In this document: positions 51,641 to 64,000 of the stretch, piece after piece
Numbering within the stretch: the first letter of the stretch is position 1
Layout: each line of letters opens with the position of its first letter
Source: Nitrospirota bacterium
GTDB lineage: Bacteria; Nitrospirota; Nitrospiria; JACQBW01
Length of the DNA stretch: 64,000 nucleotides
Direction: 5' to 3'
Assembly: GCA_016194305.1 (NCBI GenBank)
Contig: JACQBW010000007.1
Coordinates: forward strand, 124,001 to 188,000
Made by a program: the position numbers and the translations under genes
Notes under the pieces: generated by a model
Database searches by the model: none
What the model saw: the letters and a program-made list of their open reading frames with translations, nothing else
What the model was told of the DNA's origin: nothing

Positions 51641-53071
51641 CTACGGGTTAGTCAGGGGAATCGTATTTACCGGTCCAAATATGGAAAGGGAATGGTCAAA
51701 TTGGGACGACTTTCCAACGATTAACAGGGTCATCCCGTCGGGGTGTATATATTTCTGGGCAACTCTCAGGACATCCTCGCGAGTCACTTTGGATACATGG
51801 TCTCTGAACTGTTCCATAAAATCTTCCGGAAGATGATAGTATTCGAGTGAGATCTGTCTCGAGACAATCTGCGCCGAATTCGTAAATGAAAATATGAAAG
51901 AATTTAAAAAGGAGTCTTTTGCCAATCGGAGTTCTTCGGCGCTCACAGGCTCGTCTCTCATTTTCTTGATGTTTTCAAGAATTGCCGAAACGGACTGAAT
52001 CGTATTTTTAGACATGGTCTGACTAAAGGCAAAAAAGGTTCCCACCTCAATATTACCGGGATTGAAAACTGTTCCGACAGAGTAGGCCAAACCCTTGCGG
52101 GTTCTGACTTCCTGAAAAAGCCTGCTGGAGAAGGCCTGCCCGCCAAGAATGTCGTTCATCACAGAGAGAGGAAAGTAATCCGGGTTGTTTTGTTTGATTC
52201 CAAGATGCCCGATTCGAATTGAAGACTGCGTGAGGTCCTTTTCAACCAGATTAACGGTTGATTTATATTCCGGATGAATGGGGGTGAATTCTGGAAGCAT
52301 CTCCTTTCTTTTTTCCCAATTCTTAAATTTATTTTCCAGTTTTTGTATCACCTCTTCTGATTTGAAATCTCCGGCAACTCCCAGAATGATGGCATCCGGA
52401 TGAAAATACTTCGAATAGTACTCGATGCAATCCTGGCGTTTAATCTGGGAAATCGTATCCAGTGTCGTCTCTCTTGCAAAGGGGCTCTCCGTCCCATAAA
52501 GCAGTTTTAAAAACTCGCGGCTTGCAATACTGGACGGGTTATCGTTCTTCCGCCGGATATTTTCAACCTCCTGATTCTTCAACAGCTGCAATTTTTCTTC
52601 CGAAAACTTCGGATGCAAGAGAATATCCGAAAACAAATCCAGGCCCTGGTCAAAGTCTTTAGTCAGAACATTCAAACCACCGCCACCGGCTTCACCCCCA
52701 ATCCAGATCGAAATTGAAGCGGAGAGAAATTCCAGCTCTTCATCGACCTCATCACCCGATTTTTCACCGGCACCCCCCGTCCGCATCAAGGCACCGGTCA
52801 TCGAAGCGAGTCCGATCTTGTCGGCCGGCTCATAGATGCTCCCGGCTTGAACCATAAACGAGATATTCACGAGGGGGAGTTCATGATCCTCGAGGAGGTA
52901 AAGCACCATTCCGTTCGACAATTCTGTCCGCTTGCCTTTCGGAGGATGAAACACGAGCGGTTCAAATTGCAGGGAAGGTGGCGTCGCCCGGCATTCTGCC
53001 CCATAGGACGCCAAAAAAACAAAGACCAAAAGAACAAATAAAGATATTTTGAACTGGCTATGGTTTTTCAT
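51641..53071 (-). CDS. M16-family peptidase-like protein, non-catalytic partner
   Basis: A 476-residue exported protein of the M16 (pitrilysin/insulinase) family. It keeps the fold markers, for example LSNGMVLYLLEDHELPLV and GLASMTGALMRTGGAG, but where catalytic members have HxxEH it has none, so it should not bind the zinc. Its gene overlaps the catalytic M16 gene upstream by 14 bases. Such active/inactive pairs form heterodimers that degrade peptides in the periplasm. A signal peptide spans about residues 1-28. Confidence 0.9.
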   Translation of the reverse strand: MKNHSQFKISLFVLLVFVFLASYGAECRATPPSLQFEPLVFHPPKGKRTELSNGMVLYLLEDHELPLVNISFMVQAGSIYEPADKIGLASMTGALMRTGGAGEKSGDEVDEELEFLSASISIWIGGEAGGGGLNVLTKDFDQGLDLFSDILLHPKFSEEKLQLLKNQEVENIRRKNDNPSSIASREFLKLLYGTESPFARETTLDTISQIKRQDCIEYYSKYFHPDAIILGVAGDFKSEEVIQKLENKFKNWEKRKEMLPEFTPIHPEYKSTVNLVEKDLTQSSIRIGHLGIKQNNPDYFPLSVMNDILGGQAFSSRLFQEVRTRKGLAYSVGTVFNPGNIEVGTFFAFSQTMSKNTIQSVSAILENIKKMRDEPVSAEELRLAKDSFLNSFIFSFTNSAQIVSRQISLEYYHLPEDFMEQFRDHVSKVTREDVLRVAQKYIHPDGMTLLIVGKSSQFDHSLSIFGPVNTIPLTNP

Positions 53072-54575
53072 TTTGGACCTTTTCGTTCGAACCCGTTTTG
53101 CTGAGAGTCGCGACTACTTTATTGGCATTCACAAAGTATTTTTGAGCCACCCGGATAATGTCCTCCGCCTTGACATTTTCCAGTTCCTTGCGAATTCTCA
53201 AGAGATATTTCCAATCCCCGGTTAATGCCTCATAATAAGAGAGTTGGCCCGCCAATCCGCTGTTAGATTCCATCCCTCTGATGAGCGATCCATCAAATTG
53301 ATTCTTCAATTTCTGGATTTCGGTCGAGCTCACCGGTTCTGTCTTCAAGAGCGAAATTTCATCATCAATGCCTTGCTCAAGCTCTTCCAGGGAATGAGGT
53401 GCCCTGGGTGCTGCAGTTATGAAGAACAGGCTCGGGTATTTTCCTCCAGGCGTCGCGGAATCTGTCCCGATCGATTGGGCAATCTGTTTTTGGACGACAA
53501 GATGTTTGTACATACGGGACGTACGCCCATCGGACAGAAGAGAGTCGATAATGTCAAAAATAATACTGTCGGCATGACTCACCGCAGGGCGATGGTATCC
53601 GATATAAATTAGAGGATTCGCATCAAATTCAATGTGCGTCCTCCGTTCCCCTTCCTGCCTCGGTTCAACAAAAGGTACCGCCGGCGGAACAGGTCGGGAC
53701 GGAATGCGGCCAAAGGTCTTCTCCATTTCCCGAATGACCTGATCGGGTTGAATGTCTCCGACGATCGAAATGACAATATTGTTAATGCCATAATAGGTTT
53801 TAAAGAAATCTTCTGTCTGCTTGCGGCTTAGTGATTGCACATCCTGCGACCAACCGATCACAGGCAATCCGTACGGATGAACCCAAAACGCCGTACGCAT
53901 GAGCGCTTCATAAAGCTTGCCGTTTGGAGAATTCTCTGTCCGCATCCTCCGTTCTTCCAGAACCACCTGTTTCTCTTTGTAGAATTCTCTCAGTACGGGG
54001 TGGGTCATTCGATCACTTTCAAGTGCAATCCAGAGGGAAAGCCTGTTAGAAGGGAGGCTGACGGTATAATTTGTAAAATCTTTTCCGGTCGACGCATTAA
54101 ATCCGGTCGCCCCGTTCCGCCGGTAGATTTCTCCCACTTCATTCGGTATGGAATAGAGACTCTCTTTTTTTTCAAGCAAATCCATCGTCGCTTCCAGTTT
54201 CTTTATTTTCTCCGCATTTCCAAGTTCACCACGCTCCCGCTCTTCTTTCAACTCGGCAAAGGTCCTATCCAGACTTTCAAGAACGGGTTTCTCTGACGGA
54301 TAGTCTTTGGTGCCGATTTTCTCAGTCCCTTTAAATGCCATATGCTCGTAAAGGTGGGCAATGCCTGTGATTCCCGGAATTTCATTGACAGAACCTGCCT
54401 TATAAGTAATCTGGAAAGAAACGGTCGGAGAAGCATGCCTCTCAACCATTAACAAGACCAGACCATTCTTAAATGAGTGTTTAATCACCCGGCTGGATAA
54501 ATCTTCGGCCCGACTCTCGAACATCGGGGAAAGAAGAACCATAACAAAAAGTATCCGTGCTAACCTTTTTCCCAT
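53058..54575 (-). CDS. M16-family zinc metallopeptidase, catalytic partner
   Basis: A 505-residue exported peptidase with signal peptide (about 1-24) and the inverted zinc motif HLYEHMAFKG (HxxEH, about 65-69). The downstream glutamate that completes the site should lie in the stretch around residues 140-150. A long charged insertion (EKIKKLEATMDLLEKKES) follows the zinc motif. It overlaps the non-catalytic M16 gene by 14 bases, and the two should form a heterodimer. Confidence 0.92.
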   Translation of the reverse strand: MGKRLARILFVMVLLSPMFESRAEDLSSRVIKHSFKNGLVLLMVERHASPTVSFQITYKAGSVNEIPGITGIAHLYEHMAFKGTEKIGTKDYPSEKPVLESLDRTFAELKEERERGELGNAEKIKKLEATMDLLEKKESLYSIPNEVGEIYRRNGATGFNASTGKDFTNYTVSLPSNRLSLWIALESDRMTHPVLREFYKEKQVVLEERRMRTENSPNGKLYEALMRTAFWVHPYGLPVIGWSQDVQSLSRKQTEDFFKTYYGINNIVISIVGDIQPDQVIREMEKTFGRIPSRPVPPAVPFVEPRQEGERRTHIEFDANPLIYIGYHRPAVSHADSIIFDIIDSLLSDGRTSRMYKHLVVQKQIAQSIGTDSATPGGKYPSLFFITAAPRAPHSLEELEQGIDDEISLLKTEPVSSTEIQKLKNQFDGSLIRGMESNSGLAGQLSYYEALTGDWKYLLRIRKELENVKAEDIIRVAQKYFVNANKVVATLSKTGSNEKVQNEKP

Positions 54576-58211: not shown

Positions 58212-61028
58212 GTGCAAAAATTGGATCCTTCGCTCAACTGGAAAACTCTGGGGACTGAACATTTCATCGTTTACTTTCATGACGGAGAAGAAGCTCAGGG
58301 AAGAAAAGCGGCCCAGTATGCCGAAGAGATCCAATTGCTCCTCGTTGAAAAACTAAAATGGCCTCCCGCCTCGGAAAAAACCCACATCGTCCTCCTGGAC
58401 TTTATTGATAGTCCTTATGGCGCCACGCTCCCCTTCCCTCACAATGCAATCTATATTGGTTTGACGCCTCCTTTCGGCAGTCCCGTTCCCTTTCTGGTGG
58501 GTTACGATAACTGGCTGAAGGAGGTCATTGCTCACGAGTATGTTCATGTCCTTCATCTGGATATGCATGAAGGCGTTTCAACCATTATTCGCAAGATCTT
58601 TGGACGTGAACCGTTTCCTGTCCTGGTATTTAACGGTGCATTTCCGAATTTAATCCAACCCGATTGGTTGATCGAGGGCTTGGCAACCTATGAGGAAAGT
58701 GCTCTGGGAGTCAGTGACCGGAGGGATAATCCCTACGCGGAGATGATTTTGAGAATGGCAGTTCTTGAAAATCATTTTCCGACCATCGATCAGGCGGGTG
58801 GAATGGAGAGCTGGCCCGGGAACCAGATTCAATACCTGTTTGGCGCCCGATTCTACGATTTCCTTTCGAAAAGATTTGGCGAGCAAGTTCTCATCAATTT
58901 AAGCAGGGAATATAGCAGCAAGGTTGGACCTTTTTTTGTCGATTCGACCGCAAGAATTATTCTCGGACAATCTTATTCCTCCCTTTGGAATCAGTGGAAA
59001 GATGAGATAACCGTTGCCGCTCTTAAGAAGAGAGCCTCCGTGGTCCAGGAAGGAATCACAAAAACTGACTCACTCACTCATCGAGGAGATTATACCCTGG
59101 GACCCAAAATGAGTCCGGACGGAAATTGGCTGGTTTATACGTCAATCAATGAAGATGAATTCCCTTCTCTACGACTTATCCAGATTCAGACGGGTCAGGA
59201 TCGCAAATTAATTTCCAGAAACCTCGGGTTCGAATCTTCTTGGTCCAGAGATGGAAAGAAGCTTGCCTTTTCTCAGCTGGAAATTTTCAATAACTATTCC
59301 GAATTGAGCGACCTCTACCTCTATGACATGAATAAGAGAAATCTCAGCCGCCTGACCTATGGCAAGAGATTCAGGGACCCTGATTTTAACCCCGATGGCA
59401 GGAGTTTGGTCGCCATTGAAAATCAGAAGGGCAGTACCCGAATTATTCTTTATCAGCTTGATTCGGGTCTCACCGAAACCGTTGACTGGACAGACCCTGA
59501 TACGGTATTGAGTCACCCGAGATGGTCTCCGGATGGAAAAACGATTGTTGCCTCAGGATGGAAAGGCGGCCTGACCGGTCTATTTCTTCTTCAAATGGAT
59601 CAAAAAAAAATGATTCCCCTTCTTCTGGACCGATATATGAATTTGACCCCCGCTTGGACACCTGACGCCAAAAACATTGTTTTTTCCAGTGACCGGGGGG
59701 GAATTTACGATCTCTATTCCTTAAACCTGGAATCCCGGACAATATCTCAATTGACACATCTCCTGGGCGGAGCTTTCACCCCTGAAGTGTCCCCTGATGG
59801 AAAAGGAATCATTTTTTCCGGGTACCATAGTCACGGATTTGACCTTTTTAGAATGAACTGGCCGTCAACCGTAGACCGGAGTCTTGTTAGTTCTGTTCCG
59901 GAAGAACAAATCGCTCTCGAAGACCCGAAACTCCCTGTTAACGCCCTCTCGGAAACCTATTCTTCATGGCCCACCGTTCTGCCCCGATTCTGGATGCCAC
60001 TTGCCGGTGGAGACGAATCAGGCCTTCAACTGGGGGGAATGACCGCCGGCACAGATATCCTGGGCCGGCATCGTTACGATGCACTTTTGTTATATGGTCT
60101 TTCCTCAGGCCGGCCCGCCGGTTCATTTCAATACGACAACAACGCTTTCTACCCAACTTTGCACTTCGGGATGGACTTTCTGCCACTTGTGTACCCCAAC
60201 CTGTTATTAAATTCCCAAGGAAAGGAATTGGACTATTGGGAAAATAGATTTCGAACAGAATTGGACATTTCCTATACCTGGAACCGGGTAGCGAAGGTCA
60301 ATCTCTTAAAAGGAGGGTATATTTATGAATCCTTTTCATCCCTTTCAACCGTTCCACAGGTCGGTCCTCAGCCTCAAACCGGTTCGTTGCGGGGACTCCA
60401 TCTAACTTATTTATTAAATACATCAAAAGAATTTGGATTTTCGATCAGCCCGGAAAAAGGTCGTAAAATTCAAATTCACTCTGCCTGGTTTACAGACCGG
60501 CTCGGAAGTGACTTCAATCAAAACCGATTCGTCGCTTCGTGGCATGAATATATTCCGTTCTTCTTTGATCATCAACTCGTTGCGGCCCGGCTCACTGCCG
60601 CTTCTTCAACGGGGGATCCCCTTGTACAGCGGGCGTTTCAGGTCGGTGGCCCCGATTTTATGGAGGAAACCATTGTTCCGGAACAGAGTGACTTTTTTCT
60701 CAGAGGCTATTCCATACGGCTTCTTAGAGGAAACAAAGCCGCCATAGGTTCATTGGAATACCGATTTCCCATTTATAACATCGAACAGGGTTACCGGTCA
60801 TGGCCCTTCTTCTTCAAACGAGTACACGGTGCTCTCTTTTTTGATATCGGAAACGCCTGGGATCAGGATACTGCCTTACCTGATTTTAGAAGGGGGTTTG
60901 GAGCCGAATTCAAGACGGATATGCTTTTTTCTTACCTGCTACCTCTCAGACTTCGCCTGGGTGTCGGAAGAGGCGTCGATACCCAGGGGGTCACTCAATT
61001 TTATTTTATGACCGGAAACAGTTTTTAG
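58212..61028 (+). CDS. HExxH peptidase / TolB-propeller / Omp85-type barrel protein
   Basis: A protein of at least 938 residues. From the N-terminus: a peptidase-MA-like domain with IAHEYVHVLHLD (His 108, Glu 109, His 112) and the third ligand Glu 155 in WLIEGLATYEES; a TolB-type beta-propeller (about 290-590; repeats such as MSPDGNWLVYTS, PRWSPDGKTIVASG, FTPEVSPDGKGIIFSG); and a C-terminal surface-antigen/Omp85-like barrel (about 640-938, GSLEYRFPIYN, GALFFDIGNAWD). The GTG at 58212 has no signal peptide before it, but the open frame upstream encodes one with a lipobox (FAGGC). The true start is therefore probably earlier, perhaps at a non-standard codon near 58068. It would be an outer-membrane metallopeptidase. 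Confidence 0.85.
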   Translation: MQKLDPSLNWKTLGTEHFIVYFHDGEEAQGRKAAQYAEEIQLLLVEKLKWPPASEKTHIVLLDFIDSPYGATLPFPHNAIYIGLTPPFGSPVPFLVGYDNWLKEVIAHEYVHVLHLDMHEGVSTIIRKIFGREPFPVLVFNGAFPNLIQPDWLIEGLATYEESALGVSDRRDNPYAEMILRMAVLENHFPTIDQAGGMESWPGNQIQYLFGARFYDFLSKRFGEQVLINLSREYSSKVGPFFVDSTARIILGQSYSSLWNQWKDEITVAALKKRASVVQEGITKTDSLTHRGDYTLGPKMSPDGNWLVYTSINEDEFPSLRLIQIQTGQDRKLISRNLGFESSWSRDGKKLAFSQLEIFNNYSELSDLYLYDMNKRNLSRLTYGKRFRDPDFNPDGRSLVAIENQKGSTRIILYQLDSGLTETVDWTDPDTVLSHPRWSPDGKTIVASGWKGGLTGLFLLQMDQKKMIPLLLDRYMNLTPAWTPDAKNIVFSSDRGGIYDLYSLNLESRTISQLTHLLGGAFTPEVSPDGKGIIFSGYHSHGFDLFRMNWPSTVDRSLVSSVPEEQIALEDPKLPVNALSETYSSWPTVLPRFWMPLAGGDESGLQLGGMTAGTDILGRHRYDALLLYGLSSGRPAGSFQYDNNAFYPTLHFGMDFLPLVYPNLLLNSQGKELDYWENRFRTELDISYTWNRVAKVNLLKGGYIYESFSSLSTVPQVGPQPQTGSLRGLHLTYLLNTSKEFGFSISPEKGRKIQIHSAWFTDRLGSDFNQNRFVASWHEYIPFFFDHQLVAARLTAASSTGDPLVQRAFQVGGPDFMEETIVPEQSDFFLRGYSIRLLRGNKAAIGSLEYRFPIYNIEQGYRSWPFFFKRVHGALFFDIGNAWDQDTALPDFRRGFGAEFKTDMLFSYLLPLRLRLGVGRGVDTQGVTQFYFMTGNSF

Positions 61029-61076: not shown

Positions 61077-61907
61077 TCACTCAATATTCAAGTCAGTCAA
61101 GACTGCCTGAAGCGGAATAACGTCCATCGCGTCATTCCGAAAATCCACCCCTTCCATTGAAAATTTGGCAAAACCGGACATTTTAGCCTTGAACGTAAAA
61201 ATAGCCAAAACACCTGAACCCGTTATTCCACTGACTTGTCCCACCCGCGTAAGACCGATGATAATCCGACCTTGTTCAGGTTGATTCGAATTGAGAAATA
61301 AGACCTGTTGGTGATCTTGGGACAGGAAATTGCCTTGCAACACTTTTACCAATTCCAGCAAATTAGGATTATACATCAGGTAAAACGGGGCGGAAAAGAG
61401 TCTTTCGACCTGATTAATGGCAATGGTCAGAAAAACCTGCTCTCCCACGTGGATGAGGCTCGAAGAGGGTGTCCCGACGATTAAAGAAGGGGCTGGATTG
61501 GGAGTAGTCGCGTTTCCATCTGAATGAGTGACCGAATCCGAAGTTGTCGCGTTATTTTGGAAGGTCACTGTCGATTGGGGAGAAAGTTTGGTGAATATGT
61601 CTTTGCGGTCTTCTTTTCTTTCGCTGCCTGAAATAGGAGGCGGGGGCGGGGCGGAATTGTCAGCTTCCGGGCTTTCTTCTTCTTTCAGGTTCAGGGATTC
61701 CGTCTGATGGGAAGGGCGATTGTCCCTGGGACTATTTCGATCCGAATTCAATCCTTGGCTTGACGGTTTTTTCCCGGACGTTGAATCGAGTTGTTTTTCA
61801 ATCCGATTGCTCAGATGATCATACGCCTCCTCATTTGCCGCCGCACAACCTATGATCGGTAATAGAAGCAACCAAAAAGAAACGTTCCAAAATTTCTTTG
61901 TCATCAA
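61077..61907 (-). CDS. Cohesin-domain lipoprotein (second)
   Basis: A 276-residue lipoprotein with lipobox LLLPIIGCAA (Cys about 21). A long Ser/Pro/Asn-rich low-complexity linker (about 28-145, including APPPPPISGS) leads to a C-terminal cohesin-like domain (about 150-276): VGEQVFLTIAINQVERLFSA, NPNLLELVKVLQGNFL, and GSGVLAIFTFKAKMSG, the pattern of type I-like cohesins. It begins four bases after the first cohesin lipoprotein. The linker would hold the domain away from the membrane to bind a dockerin partner. Confidence 0.8.
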   Translation of the reverse strand: MMTKKFWNVSFWLLLLPIIGCAAANEEAYDHLSNRIEKQLDSTSGKKPSSQGLNSDRNSPRDNRPSHQTESLNLKEEESPEADNSAPPPPPISGSERKEDRKDIFTKLSPQSTVTFQNNATTSDSVTHSDGNATTPNPAPSLIVGTPSSSLIHVGEQVFLTIAINQVERLFSAPFYLMYNPNLLELVKVLQGNFLSQDHQQVLFLNSNQPEQGRIIIGLTRVGQVSGITGSGVLAIFTFKAKMSGFAKFSMEGVDFRNDAMDVIPLQAVLTDLNIE

Positions 61908-61911
61908 TGAA

Positions 61912-62550
61912 TCAGGAACCCATCAATTCGCCAGTAACCCAGGTCAAGGGAGGAAGAGGAGCAGGAGGAGCAGGAGGTGGAGTCGGAGCAAGAAGATTAT
62001 TAATTTCGAAATTTGGATTACTGCTTCCGATAGCAATAGCCTTAAAGGTCAGCTGGATCATAACGCCGCTTCCTTTAACTCCCGCTCCATTCTGTTGAGT
62101 AACACCAACCACGAGGCGATTATTGGTATTAGATTGGAGTGCGGCAAGATAATTCACCTTAACACCGCCATTGTCTTCAAAAAAAGTTCCCGGAGCAAAT
62201 GAAACAAAAGTGACCAGGCTGGGGTTAAATACCAGATCAAAGGCTGCCGCCGAAGAAAGACTCGATAAATTAGTGACCTCCACATCCAGAGTAATCGTAT
62301 CCCCTTGAACTGACTTTTTGGTCACGCTAATCAAATTGCTGGTGACATTCGTAGAAGAGGGTAAAAAATCCGGAGTAATGCTTGTACTGACGGGTGCTCC
62401 GGCACCGCCGCCCCCTCCGCTGCTTCCGCCGCAGGCTGAAAAAATCAGAACAAGGGTGCAAATCAAGGCCAGGGATAAGAGCCCCCGAGTCCTCCTGATC
62501 ATCGTTTGAAAAATTGCCAGTGTAAATTTTGCAATTGTCATATTTTCCAT
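61912..62550 (-). CDS. Cohesin-domain lipoprotein (first)
   Basis: A 212-residue lipoprotein. After the signal peptide (LALICTLVLIFSACGG, lipobox Cys about 39) a short Gly/Ser/Ala linker leads to a cohesin-like domain (about 70-190): VQGDTITLDVEVTNLSSLSS, AAAFDLVFNPSLVTFVSFAPG and GSGVMIQLTFKAIAIG. The C-terminus carries a Pro-rich stretch. Its ATG overlaps the stop of the dockerin gene by one base. The GSGV and Leu/Phe strand patterns are shared with the second cohesin lipoprotein. Confidence 0.8.
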   Translation of the reverse strand: MENMTIAKFTLAIFQTMIRRTRGLLSLALICTLVLIFSACGGSSGGGGGAGAPVSTSITPDFLPSSTNVTSNLISVTKKSVQGDTITLDVEVTNLSSLSSAAAFDLVFNPSLVTFVSFAPGTFFEDNGGVKVNYLAALQSNTNNRLVVGVTQQNGAGVKGSGVMIQLTFKAIAIGSSNPNFEINNLLAPTPPPAPPAPLPPLTWVTGELMGS

Positions 62551-64000
62551 TATTGAACCTTTCCAAAATTAATTGCCATAATCGTCAAATCTTTTCCGTC
62601 CACAATCCCGTCGTTATTCAAATCCGTCAGAGCATTCCAATTGGTTTTTGAAGGATCAGACCCAAAGGCACGTCCGAGTTCCTCCAGATCATATCCGTCA
62701 ATTCGGTTAGCCGATGCGGGAATAAGCATGCTGACATTTCCTGCATCCCCGAGTATCGCAGACCTCGTCACAAAAGCGGCGTCGACTCCGCAAACCTTGT
62801 TGCCTGTCGTTGAGACGCAGAATCGATAATGATAGAAAGTATTTGCTAACAGGCCATTTACATCCTGATGAAAGTCGAGGGGAGTGTTTCCGGAAATAAT
62901 CTGACTCGTGGTATTTGTACCGTAGGTCTGGTCTGTGCCGAATTCAAACCATGCGGTTCCAGAATTCCCGTTGGCATTGCCAACCCCGGAAAAATTGGCG
63001 GAGTTTGTGGTCAAAAGCGTTACGGGACCTGACGTCGCATTCGCCAGGAGGGTATAGACTTCAGTCCGGACACTTTCCTCATTTCCCGCTTTATCCGTGG
63101 AAAAAAACTTGAGGGTGGTATCGGCCATAATCGATATCGGTCCTGTATAGAGAAGCGATGTCACCGTCGGAATTGAACCATCTGTCGTAAAATAGGTTTC
63201 AGAACAGCCGGAATTGTTATCTGAACAGGCGAGACTCACTGTTTGACTTGTCCCATAACTTCCTCCCGGCGGGGAAGCCAAGGTCGCAGGAACAACAGAA
63301 TCAATGATATAAGTCTGTGTCTTAACCGGTTCTAAATTTCCAGCGACATCTTTTGAAAAGAATTTTAGTGTCGTATTTGACGATATGAGAATGGGAGTTG
63401 TATAGACGGCTGACGATGTCGTTGGAATCGTTCCATTCGTCGTGTAGTAAGTTGCCGCACAACTGGAAAACTTGATGGTACACATTAAACTGACGCTCTG
63501 CGGTGTGCGATAGGCCCCGGCCGAAGGATTCGCAGCGGTAATCAGGCCGTCGACTGAAAAGGCCGCCGGCAGGCTGATAGAGAGCCCGCCTCCTGCCACA
63601 GGATTCGTCACCGTGACATTATAAGTTCCCACTTGCAGAGAGGTATTGAGCCAGTAAATGGAAATCCTGCTGCTGGAAAGGTAAACAAAAGGATGCGCTG
63701 CCGTAGCCGGTACCGTTGAAGTAACGGCCGTTCCAGTCAGCGTTCCGACTGAAATGGTCGCTCCGGGCACAAAGTTTGTCCCTGATATCGTTAAGGCACT
63801 GCTTGGCGTTATTCCATAGGTTGCACTGGATGGACTCACCCCGGTCAGGGTTGGTTGCGGAATGACTACCGCAAAAGCCGATGCCAGGATTTCAGAAAGT
63901 CCGCCGCCCGCCGCGGGATTCGTCACCGTCACGGGATAAGCCCCCGGTAAGAGAGAGGTGTTTGCCCAGTAGAAGGAGAGTTTACTGCTGGAAAGATAAA
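62550..64000 (-). CDS. Surface protein with IPT/TIG and chitobiase-like repeats and C-terminal dockerin (partial)
   Basis: The frame is open to the window edge, so the N-terminus lies outside. Visible in order: at least two IPT/TIG-type repeats (SSSRISIYWLNTSLQVGTYN, VTVTNPVAGGGLSISL), two chitobiase C-terminal-like repeats (AGAYRTPQSVSLMC, YTTNGTIPTTSSAVYT, GSYGTSQTVSLACSD), a fibronectin-like stretch, and a C-terminal dockerin-like module with NRIDGYDLEELGRAFGS and LNNDGIVDGKDLTIMAINFG, the second a clear F-hand repeat with calcium ligands. The stop overlaps the first cohesin lipoprotein by one base, so dockerin and cohesins are made together. Confidence 0.8.
   Translation of the reverse strand, partial: YLSSSKLSFYWANTSLLPGAYPVTVTNPAAGGGLSEILASAFAVVIPQPTLTGVSPSSATYGITPSSALTISGTNFVPGATISVGTLTGTAVTSTVPATAAHPFVYLSSSRISIYWLNTSLQVGTYNVTVTNPVAGGGLSISLPAAFSVDGLITAANPSAGAYRTPQSVSLMCTIKFSSCAATYYTTNGTIPTTSSAVYTTPILISSNTTLKFFSKDVAGNLEPVKTQTYIIDSVVPATLASPPGGSYGTSQTVSLACSDNNSGCSETYFTTDGSIPTVTSLLYTGPISIMADTTLKFFSTDKAGNEESVRTEVYTLLANATSGPVTLLTTNSANFSGVGNANGNSGTAWFEFGTDQTYGTNTTSQIISGNTPLDFHQDVNGLLANTFYHYRFCVSTTGNKVCGVDAAFVTRSAILGDAGNVSMLIPASANRIDGYDLEELGRAFGSDPSKTNWNALTDLNNDGIVDGKDLTIMAINFGKVQ

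What the first reader, a model, noticed from the sequence alone, without database searches (positions are those of the whole stretch)
61077..64000. Operon of a dockerin-bearing surface protein and two cohesin lipoproteins
Three tightly packed minus-strand genes (one-base overlap, then four-base gap) encode a multi-repeat surface protein ending in a dockerin-like F-hand module and two lipoproteins with cohesin-like domains. Seen: the motifs and packing. Known: cohesin and dockerin bind each other with high affinity and calcium dependence in cellulosomes, and non-cellulosomal pairs occur in many bacteria. Inference: the lipoproteins anchor the surface protein to the outer membrane as a two-receptor scaffold with no carbohydrate-degrading enzyme in sight.
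Basis: partly seen in the sequence, partly recalled or inferred. Interest (0 to 1): 0.7.

Follow-up and report, generated by a model that had tools for sequence, protein, structure and literature searches.

The report
Dockerin-tailed surface protein with lipoprotein cohesins
A bacterium with no visible link to cellulose breakdown carries an operon in which a large surface protein ends in a dockerin plug and the next two genes make lipid-anchored proteins with cohesin sockets; the same plug-and-socket gene pair recurs with many different cargo proteins in distant bacteria, so it looks like a reusable way to fasten exported proteins to the cell, though no binding has been shown.

Summary
The three-gene minus-strand operon is real, and its genes hold up as cohesin and dockerin. 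Both lipoproteins pass Pfam's Cohesin cut-off. The giant protein's tail is sub-threshold in Pfam, but it is a dockerin by profile, predicted fold and relatives, closest to type II, the class that anchors cellulosomes. It is a subtype with loop 1 lengthened by about five residues. The same genome has a second pair: a subtilase with a dockerin tail, overlapping a cohesin-lipoprotein gene. The pair recurs in other families and classes of the phylum and in an unrelated MAG (STD1_102: 12 dockerins, 11 lipoprotein cohesins, 6 adjacent versus 0.11 expected). The cargo changes (subtilase, M6 peptidase, VWA, beta-propeller, RCC1, NHL/Fn3 giants); dockerin and cohesin persist. The likeliest reading is a private tether: the dockerin tail plugs into the lipoprotein next door. 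The 'two equivalent receptors' idea is not supported: c1 belongs with the dockerin-partner lipoproteins, c2 with cohesins at the C-terminus of the type II secretion secretin. Binding and surface exposure are inferred; AlphaFold gave both domains but no confident docking. Non-cellulosomal cohesin-dockerin systems, including adjacent genes in syntrophic sulfate reducers, are published; this is a well-defined new variant.

The parts
62550..64000 (-). C-terminal part of a giant repeat protein (482 aa in the window, 696 aa to the contig end); ends in a dockerin; N-terminus beyond the assembly
   Evidence: NCBIfam choice-of-anchor Z repeats 104.9 bits (cut-off 30) and OmpL47-type domain 43.9 bits (cut-off 40) on the 696-aa form; Pfam CHB_HEX_C_1 114.8 bits, 2 stretches
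63570..63860 (-). choice-of-anchor Z repeat (best stretch inside the window; 3 stretches on the full ORF)
63063..63272 (-). CHB_HEX_C_1 / Fn3_assoc domain (best of two stretches)
62553..62771 (-). dockerin module (73 aa): loop 1 lengthened by about 5 residues (GNVSMLIPASANRIDGYDL), loop 2 canonical (DLNNDGIVDGKDL)
   Evidence: profile E 1.6e-31; alignment of 16; AlphaFold model pLDDT 76.9, pTM 0.66 whose first 12 PDB matches are all type II cohesin-dockerin or scaffoldin complex structures
61912..62550 (-). c1: cohesin lipoprotein of the dockerin-partner group, 212 aa
   Evidence: Pfam Cohesin 33.8 bits; leave-out profile of dockerin-partner lipoproteins 97.7 bits versus secretin cohesins 55.6; orthologue in G007 53% identical over the domain
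62431..62433 (-). c1 lipobox cysteine (LIFSAC, followed by a Gly/Ser-rich linker)
   Evidence: sequence
62032..62313 (-). c1 cohesin domain
   Evidence: residues 80-173
61077..61907 (-). c2: second cohesin lipoprotein, 276 aa (TTG start; ATG at 61904); long linker, then a cohesin of the secretin type
   Evidence: Pfam Cohesin 41.3 bits; secretin-cohesin profile 116.7 bits versus lipoprotein profile 65.2; tree 99/95 with secretin cohesins
61845..61847 (-). c2 lipobox cysteine (LPIIGC)
   Evidence: sequence
61173..61463 (-). c2 cohesin domain
   Evidence: residues 149-245

Best explanation
The operon encodes a surface protein and its own tether. The giant repeat protein is exported and ends in a type II-like dockerin. 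c1, made from the next gene, is a lipoprotein whose cohesin domain holds that dockerin, so the giant is fastened to the (probably outer) membrane by a non-covalent, calcium-dependent plug and socket instead of a transmembrane, sortase or other covalent anchor. Bacteria reuse the same plug and socket for unrelated cargo (proteases, VWA protein, beta-propellers), and in related genomes extend it with proteins carrying both a cohesin and a dockerin. c2 is a second lipoprotein whose cohesin is of the kind at the C-terminus of the type II secretion secretin; it may bind the same dockerin or do a separate job. Shown: gene order, domain identity, recurrence, cargo swapping, two cohesin groups. Inferred: binding, calcium need, membrane side, c2's partner.
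For: Pfam and fold identity. A second pair in the same genome: subtilase-dockerin overlapping a cohesin-lipoprotein gene. Pairs in G002, G007 (two), G025 and G026: every strong dockerin of this subtype among 270 genomes of the class (7 of 7) sits directly before a cohesin lipoprotein. In other classes of the phylum: G368 giant-dockerin then cohesin lipoprotein, with a subtilase-dockerin next door; G383 dockerin / cohesin+dockerin / cohesin lipoprotein; G399; G411. In unrelated MAG STD1_102: 12 dockerins, 11 lipoprotein cohesins, 6 adjacent in either order, against 0.11 expected from random placement of an assumed 2,400 genes. Dockerin and cohesin distances correlate over 13 pairs (r 0.70, p 0.007 with partners shuffled within lineages). 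The giant carries choice-of-anchor Z repeats and the VWA cargo a choice-of-anchor X domain, domains named for homologous proteins with varying C-terminal anchors (meaning of the name from my own knowledge). Type II is the surface-anchoring class in cellulosomes (own knowledge).
Against: No binding data. AlphaFold of a dockerin-cohesin pair read as one chain gave both domains with high confidence but pTM only 0.59, so no confident docking. The first calcium loop is non-canonical. Orthology alone could produce part of the distance correlation. Cohesin domains of the secretin type occur in many genomes where no such dockerin was found, so a cohesin alone does not imply a dockerin partner. Some dockerins and cohesins in STD1_102 have no neighbour partner.
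Confidence: 0.7

Rival explanations
1. Both lipoproteins are equivalent receptors for the same dockerin, making a two-receptor scaffold.
For: Both are cohesin lipoproteins in one operon, conserved together in G000 and G007.
Against: c1 and c2 belong to different cohesin groups, although a single lipoprotein clade is not firmly rejected (AU p 0.125). All other pairs found use a c1-type cohesin only.
Confidence: 0.25
2. The cohesins face the periplasm and hold the dockerin protein there, so the system retains periplasmic proteins or acts during export and does not display them.
For: A lipobox alone does not tell which side of the outer membrane a lipoprotein faces; the secretin's C-terminal cohesin probably lies on the periplasmic side (own knowledge).
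Against: Cargo types (subtilases, giant Ig/Fn3/NHL repeat proteins, choice-of-anchor repeats) are typical of exposed or exported proteins.
Confidence: 0.25
3. The adjacency reflects co-regulation of two surface proteins that do not bind each other; the cohesins bind other ligands.
For: Secretin-type cohesins exist in dozens of genomes of the class where no dockerin of this subtype was found.
Against: The dockerin-partner cohesin group tracks this dockerin subtype across several families, classes and an unrelated MAG while the rest of the passenger changes.
Confidence: 0.1
4. It is a cellulosome-like polysaccharide-degrading complex.
For: Same two modules; CHB_HEX_C_1 domain in the giant.
Against: No multi-cohesin scaffoldin, carbohydrate-binding module or glycoside hydrolase is in the pairs; cargo is proteases and repeat proteins.
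Confidence: 0.02

Closest known systems
Type II cohesin-dockerin anchoring of cellulosomes (e.g. CipA X-dockerin to SdbA/OlpB; PDB 2b59, 5g5d, 2y3n)
   Same: The window dockerin model matches type II dockerins best, and the lipoprotein-cohesin profile hits type II cohesins first; an anchoring role.
   Different: Lipoprotein anchor instead of an SLH protein, one cohesin per anchor, private gene pairs, lengthened loop 1, no cellulosome.
Archaeoglobus fulgidus non-cellulosomal cohesin-dockerin pair (cohesin structure PDB 2xdh; used in PMC9705933)
   Same: Non-cellulosomal pair, with binding reported for the archaeal modules; the cohesin fold is matched here.
   Different: Archaeal; no lipoprotein-passenger bicistron of this design in the papers read.
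Adjacent cohesin/dockerin proteins of syntrophic sulfate-reducing partners of ANME (PMC10553843) and ANME cohesin/dockerin proteins (PMC9012536)
   Same: Diderm bacteria with adjacent cohesin/dockerin genes, S8 protease and Ig/Fn3 domain proteins, read as adhesins.
   Different: There proposed for cell-cell adhesion in consortia; lipoprotein cohesins as private anchors, the loop-1 dockerin subtype and cargo swapping are not described in the text read (supplementary tables not read).
Candidatus Stygibacter cellulosome-like complex, Cloacimonadota (PMC8542988)
   Same: Dockerin-tailed S8 and other peptidases in a diderm.
   Different: One large scaffoldin with tandem cohesins and CBMs and a C-terminal surface domain.

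Membership tests
Cohesin | Pfam PF00963 match above the curated cut-off | tested here: met
   c1 33.8, c2 41.3 bits; cut-off 24.1
Cohesin | nine-stranded jelly-roll cohesin fold | tested here: met
   Model of a homologous pair (L114): the 50 listed PDB matches are cohesins or cohesin-containing scaffoldin structures. The window's own c1 and c2 were not folded.
Dockerin | Pfam Dockerin_1 above cut-off | tested here: not met
   Window tail 16.6 bits versus 22.9; the second dockerin of the genome passes, 25.4-28.5 bits
Dockerin | dockerin fold: two F-hand loop-helix segments | tested here: met
   Model of the window's tail with two helices; first 12 PDB matches are type II cohesin-dockerin or scaffoldin complex structures, best E 2.7e-4; HMM hits to PDB dockerins from 2.7e-14
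Dockerin | two canonical 12-residue calcium loops | tested here: inconclusive
   Loop 2 canonical; loop 1 about 5 residues longer with ligands partly kept
Type II cohesin-dockerin pair | high-affinity calcium-dependent binding between the modules | not testable with these tools
   AlphaFold of a natural pair gave no confident docking (pTM 0.59)
Type II cohesin-dockerin pair | X module before the dockerin | not tested
   The segment before the dockerin was not modelled on its own
Cellulosome | scaffoldin with several cohesins | tested here: not met
   PF00963 and A4 searches find single-cohesin lipoproteins in the own genome, and one cohesin on its secretin by direct reading
Cellulosome | dockerin-bearing carbohydrate-active enzymes | tested here: not met
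   Only two dockerin proteins found in the own genome: the giant (N-terminus missing) and a subtilase
Bacterial lipoprotein | N-terminal signal with lipobox cysteine | tested here: met
   LIFSAC and PIIGC motifs by sequence; no signal-peptide predictor was run

The most novel reading that the evidence does not exclude
Export and anchoring are coupled: the dockerin tail is recognised first by the cohesin domain at the end of the type II secretion secretin (and possibly a pseudopilin-like cohesin protein), then handed through the secretin-type lipoprotein c2 to the anchor c1, so that one module serves as secretion tag and anchor.
Probability: 0.07. Interest if true: 0.85.

Novelty: new variant of a known kind. 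Interest (0 to 1): 0.55.

Why it matters
If binding is confirmed, diderm bacteria use cohesin-dockerin as a general, swappable anchor for exported proteases and giant surface proteins, with the socket encoded beside each cargo. That would give a function to many orphan cohesin lipoproteins, supply new orthogonal pairs for surface display, and pose a concrete question about why the type II secretion secretin carries a related cohesin.

Tried and rejected
Cellulosome: rejected, no scaffoldin and no carbohydrate enzymes in the pairs. Loop 1 as dead: I first read it as having lost its calcium ligands; aligned with relatives it is lengthened by about five residues with ligands partly kept. Complex prediction: no tool takes two chains, so I used a natural pair that lies in one frame (L114, TAA read as Gly) for AlphaFold; domains fold, docking unresolved. 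Tandem repeats at DNA level in the giant: none over the score limit. NCBIfam 'lipo-invert' match to c1 (17.1 bits, cut-off 37) judged a signal-peptide-like chance match. An orphan lipoprotein cohesin in G007 (L028) and one in G004 (L074, at a contig end) have no dockerin neighbour in sight. The window's organism could not be named.

Full report
OBSERVATION. On the minus strand a long ORF ends at 62550, c1 runs 62550-61912 and c2 61907-61077. The giant's stop and c1's ATG share one base; c2 starts four bases after c1's stop if TTG is used, seven if the ATG at 61904 is used. The contig ends 640 bases beyond the window, still inside the giant's repeats, so its N-terminus is unknown.

DOMAINS. c1 and c2 pass Pfam's Cohesin cut-off. 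The tail of the giant is below the Dockerin_1 cut-off (16.6 versus 22.9 bits). Three other results make it a dockerin: a profile of related tails, the AlphaFold model of the window's own tail whose first 12 PDB matches are all type II cohesin-dockerin or scaffoldin complex structures, and HMM matches of the group to solved dockerins. The cohesin profile hits solved type II cohesins first, and the 50 PDB matches listed for a modelled homologous pair are cohesins or cohesin-bearing scaffoldins. In the 16 aligned tails, loop 2 is canonical for calcium binding in most; loop 1 typically reads GN[IV][DS]...P.S..R[VI]DG[YHF]DL, about five residues longer than the standard 12-residue loop.

A SECOND PAIR AND RELATIVES. 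The same genome has a second dockerin, on contig C35: a subtilase whose dockerin tail is followed, with an ATGA overlap, by a 181-aa cohesin lipoprotein. G002 (same family) has that pair too. G007 (another family) holds both modules side by side: subtilase-dockerin, cohesin, NHL/Fn3 giant-dockerin, then orthologues of c1 and c2. G025 (subtilase) and G026 (beta-propeller) have single pairs. Among 270 genomes of the class these seven are all the strong dockerins of the subtype, and all seven sit directly before a cohesin lipoprotein. A wider draw of 396 genomes of the phylum added G368 (subtilase-dockerin, NHL/HYR giant-dockerin, cohesin lipoprotein), G383 (fn3-dockerin, a cohesin-to-dockerin protein, cohesin lipoprotein), G399, G411 (dockerin in a shifted frame, then cohesin lipoprotein) and G410 (cohesin-like and dockerin in one protein); G377 has a canonical-type dockerin with no cohesin seen near it.

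AN UNRELATED GENOME WITH A LARGE SET. The single scan of named genomes found MAG 'bacterium isolate STD1_102'. It holds about 12 dockerins of the subtype and 11 lipoprotein cohesins; six are immediate neighbours in either order, and a seventh pair is split by contig ends. Random placement of 12 and 11 genes among an assumed 2,400 gives 0.11 neighbours on average and never six in 20,000 draws. The cargo there includes a subtilase with PKD and LVIVD repeats, an M6 metallopeptidase, a VWA protein and RCC1 repeats.

TWO KINDS OF COHESIN IN ONE OPERON. With c1, c2 and their G007 orthologues left out of the profiles, c1 scores 97.7 bits with dockerin-partner lipoproteins and 55.6 with secretin cohesins; c2 scores 65.2 and 116.7. 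In the tree c2 and its orthologue join the secretin cohesins (99/95 without long branches); one clade of all lipoproteins is not firmly rejected (p 0.125). The own genome's secretin (L111) ends in such a domain, read by eye and not over the Pfam cut-off. Many ~800-aa proteins of the class carry one, and those read were secretins; most of these genomes have no dockerin of this subtype.

CO-VARIATION. Over 13 neighbour pairs the distances between dockerins and between their cohesins correlate (r 0.70); shuffling partners within lineages reaches this in 0.7% of draws. Orthology explains part of this.

MECHANISM. Best reading: the giant is exported and held by its dockerin in c1's cohesin, c1 being fixed in the membrane by its lipid. 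Shown: gene order, domains, recurrence, cargo swapping, two cohesin groups. Inferred: binding, calcium need, membrane side. c2's partner is open. The choice-of-anchor repeats of the giant fit a protein that uses a dockerin where relatives use other anchors.

KNOWN OR NEW. Non-cellulosomal cohesin-dockerin modules are known in all domains of life (Peer et al. 2009, cited in PMC9012536 and PMC8542988; the paper itself is not held). Adjacent cohesin/dockerin genes were noted in syntrophic sulfate reducers (PMC10553843), peptidases with dockerins in Cloacimonadota (PMC8542988). My searches found no paper on lipoprotein cohesins as private anchors paired with swapped cargo, but only open papers were searched. 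I class it as a new variant of a known kind.

Noticed in passing
L111:871-3216 (own genome, contig C21) and many ~800-aa ORFs of the class: The type II secretion secretin carries a C-terminal cohesin-like domain in many genomes of the class, mostly without detectable dockerins of this subtype; its ligand is unknown.
   Followed up: partly
L120:4678-5235 (STD1_102): Next to a secretin with a C-terminal cohesin lies a short pseudopilin-like protein that is nearly all cohesin and very similar to the secretin's domain.
   Followed up: no
L188:4268-7234 and L190:1-2608: Proteins with a cohesin at the N-terminus and a dockerin at the C-terminus sit between a short fn3-dockerin protein and a cohesin lipoprotein, an arrangement that could build chains.
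   Followed up: partly
L042:6809-8577 and L004:2235-3071: One or two related genes that look ATP-grasp/RimK-like follow the subtilase-cohesin pair in two genera of the family (identification by eye).
   Followed up: no
window 58212-61028: Neighbour gene on the opposite strand joins PD40 beta-propeller repeats to an Omp85-type barrel in one 938-aa ORF.
   Followed up: no
window 51641-54575: Two M16-type peptidase genes in tandem; Pfam run on the first only.
   Followed up: no
PDB 8x39/8x3a: A solved 'Serine protease' chain with four dockerin-like repeats is among the best PDB matches of the dockerin profile.
   Followed up: no
L028:6590-7198 and L118:4381-4962: Orphan cohesin lipoproteins of the c1 type with no dockerin neighbour seen.
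   Followed up: partly
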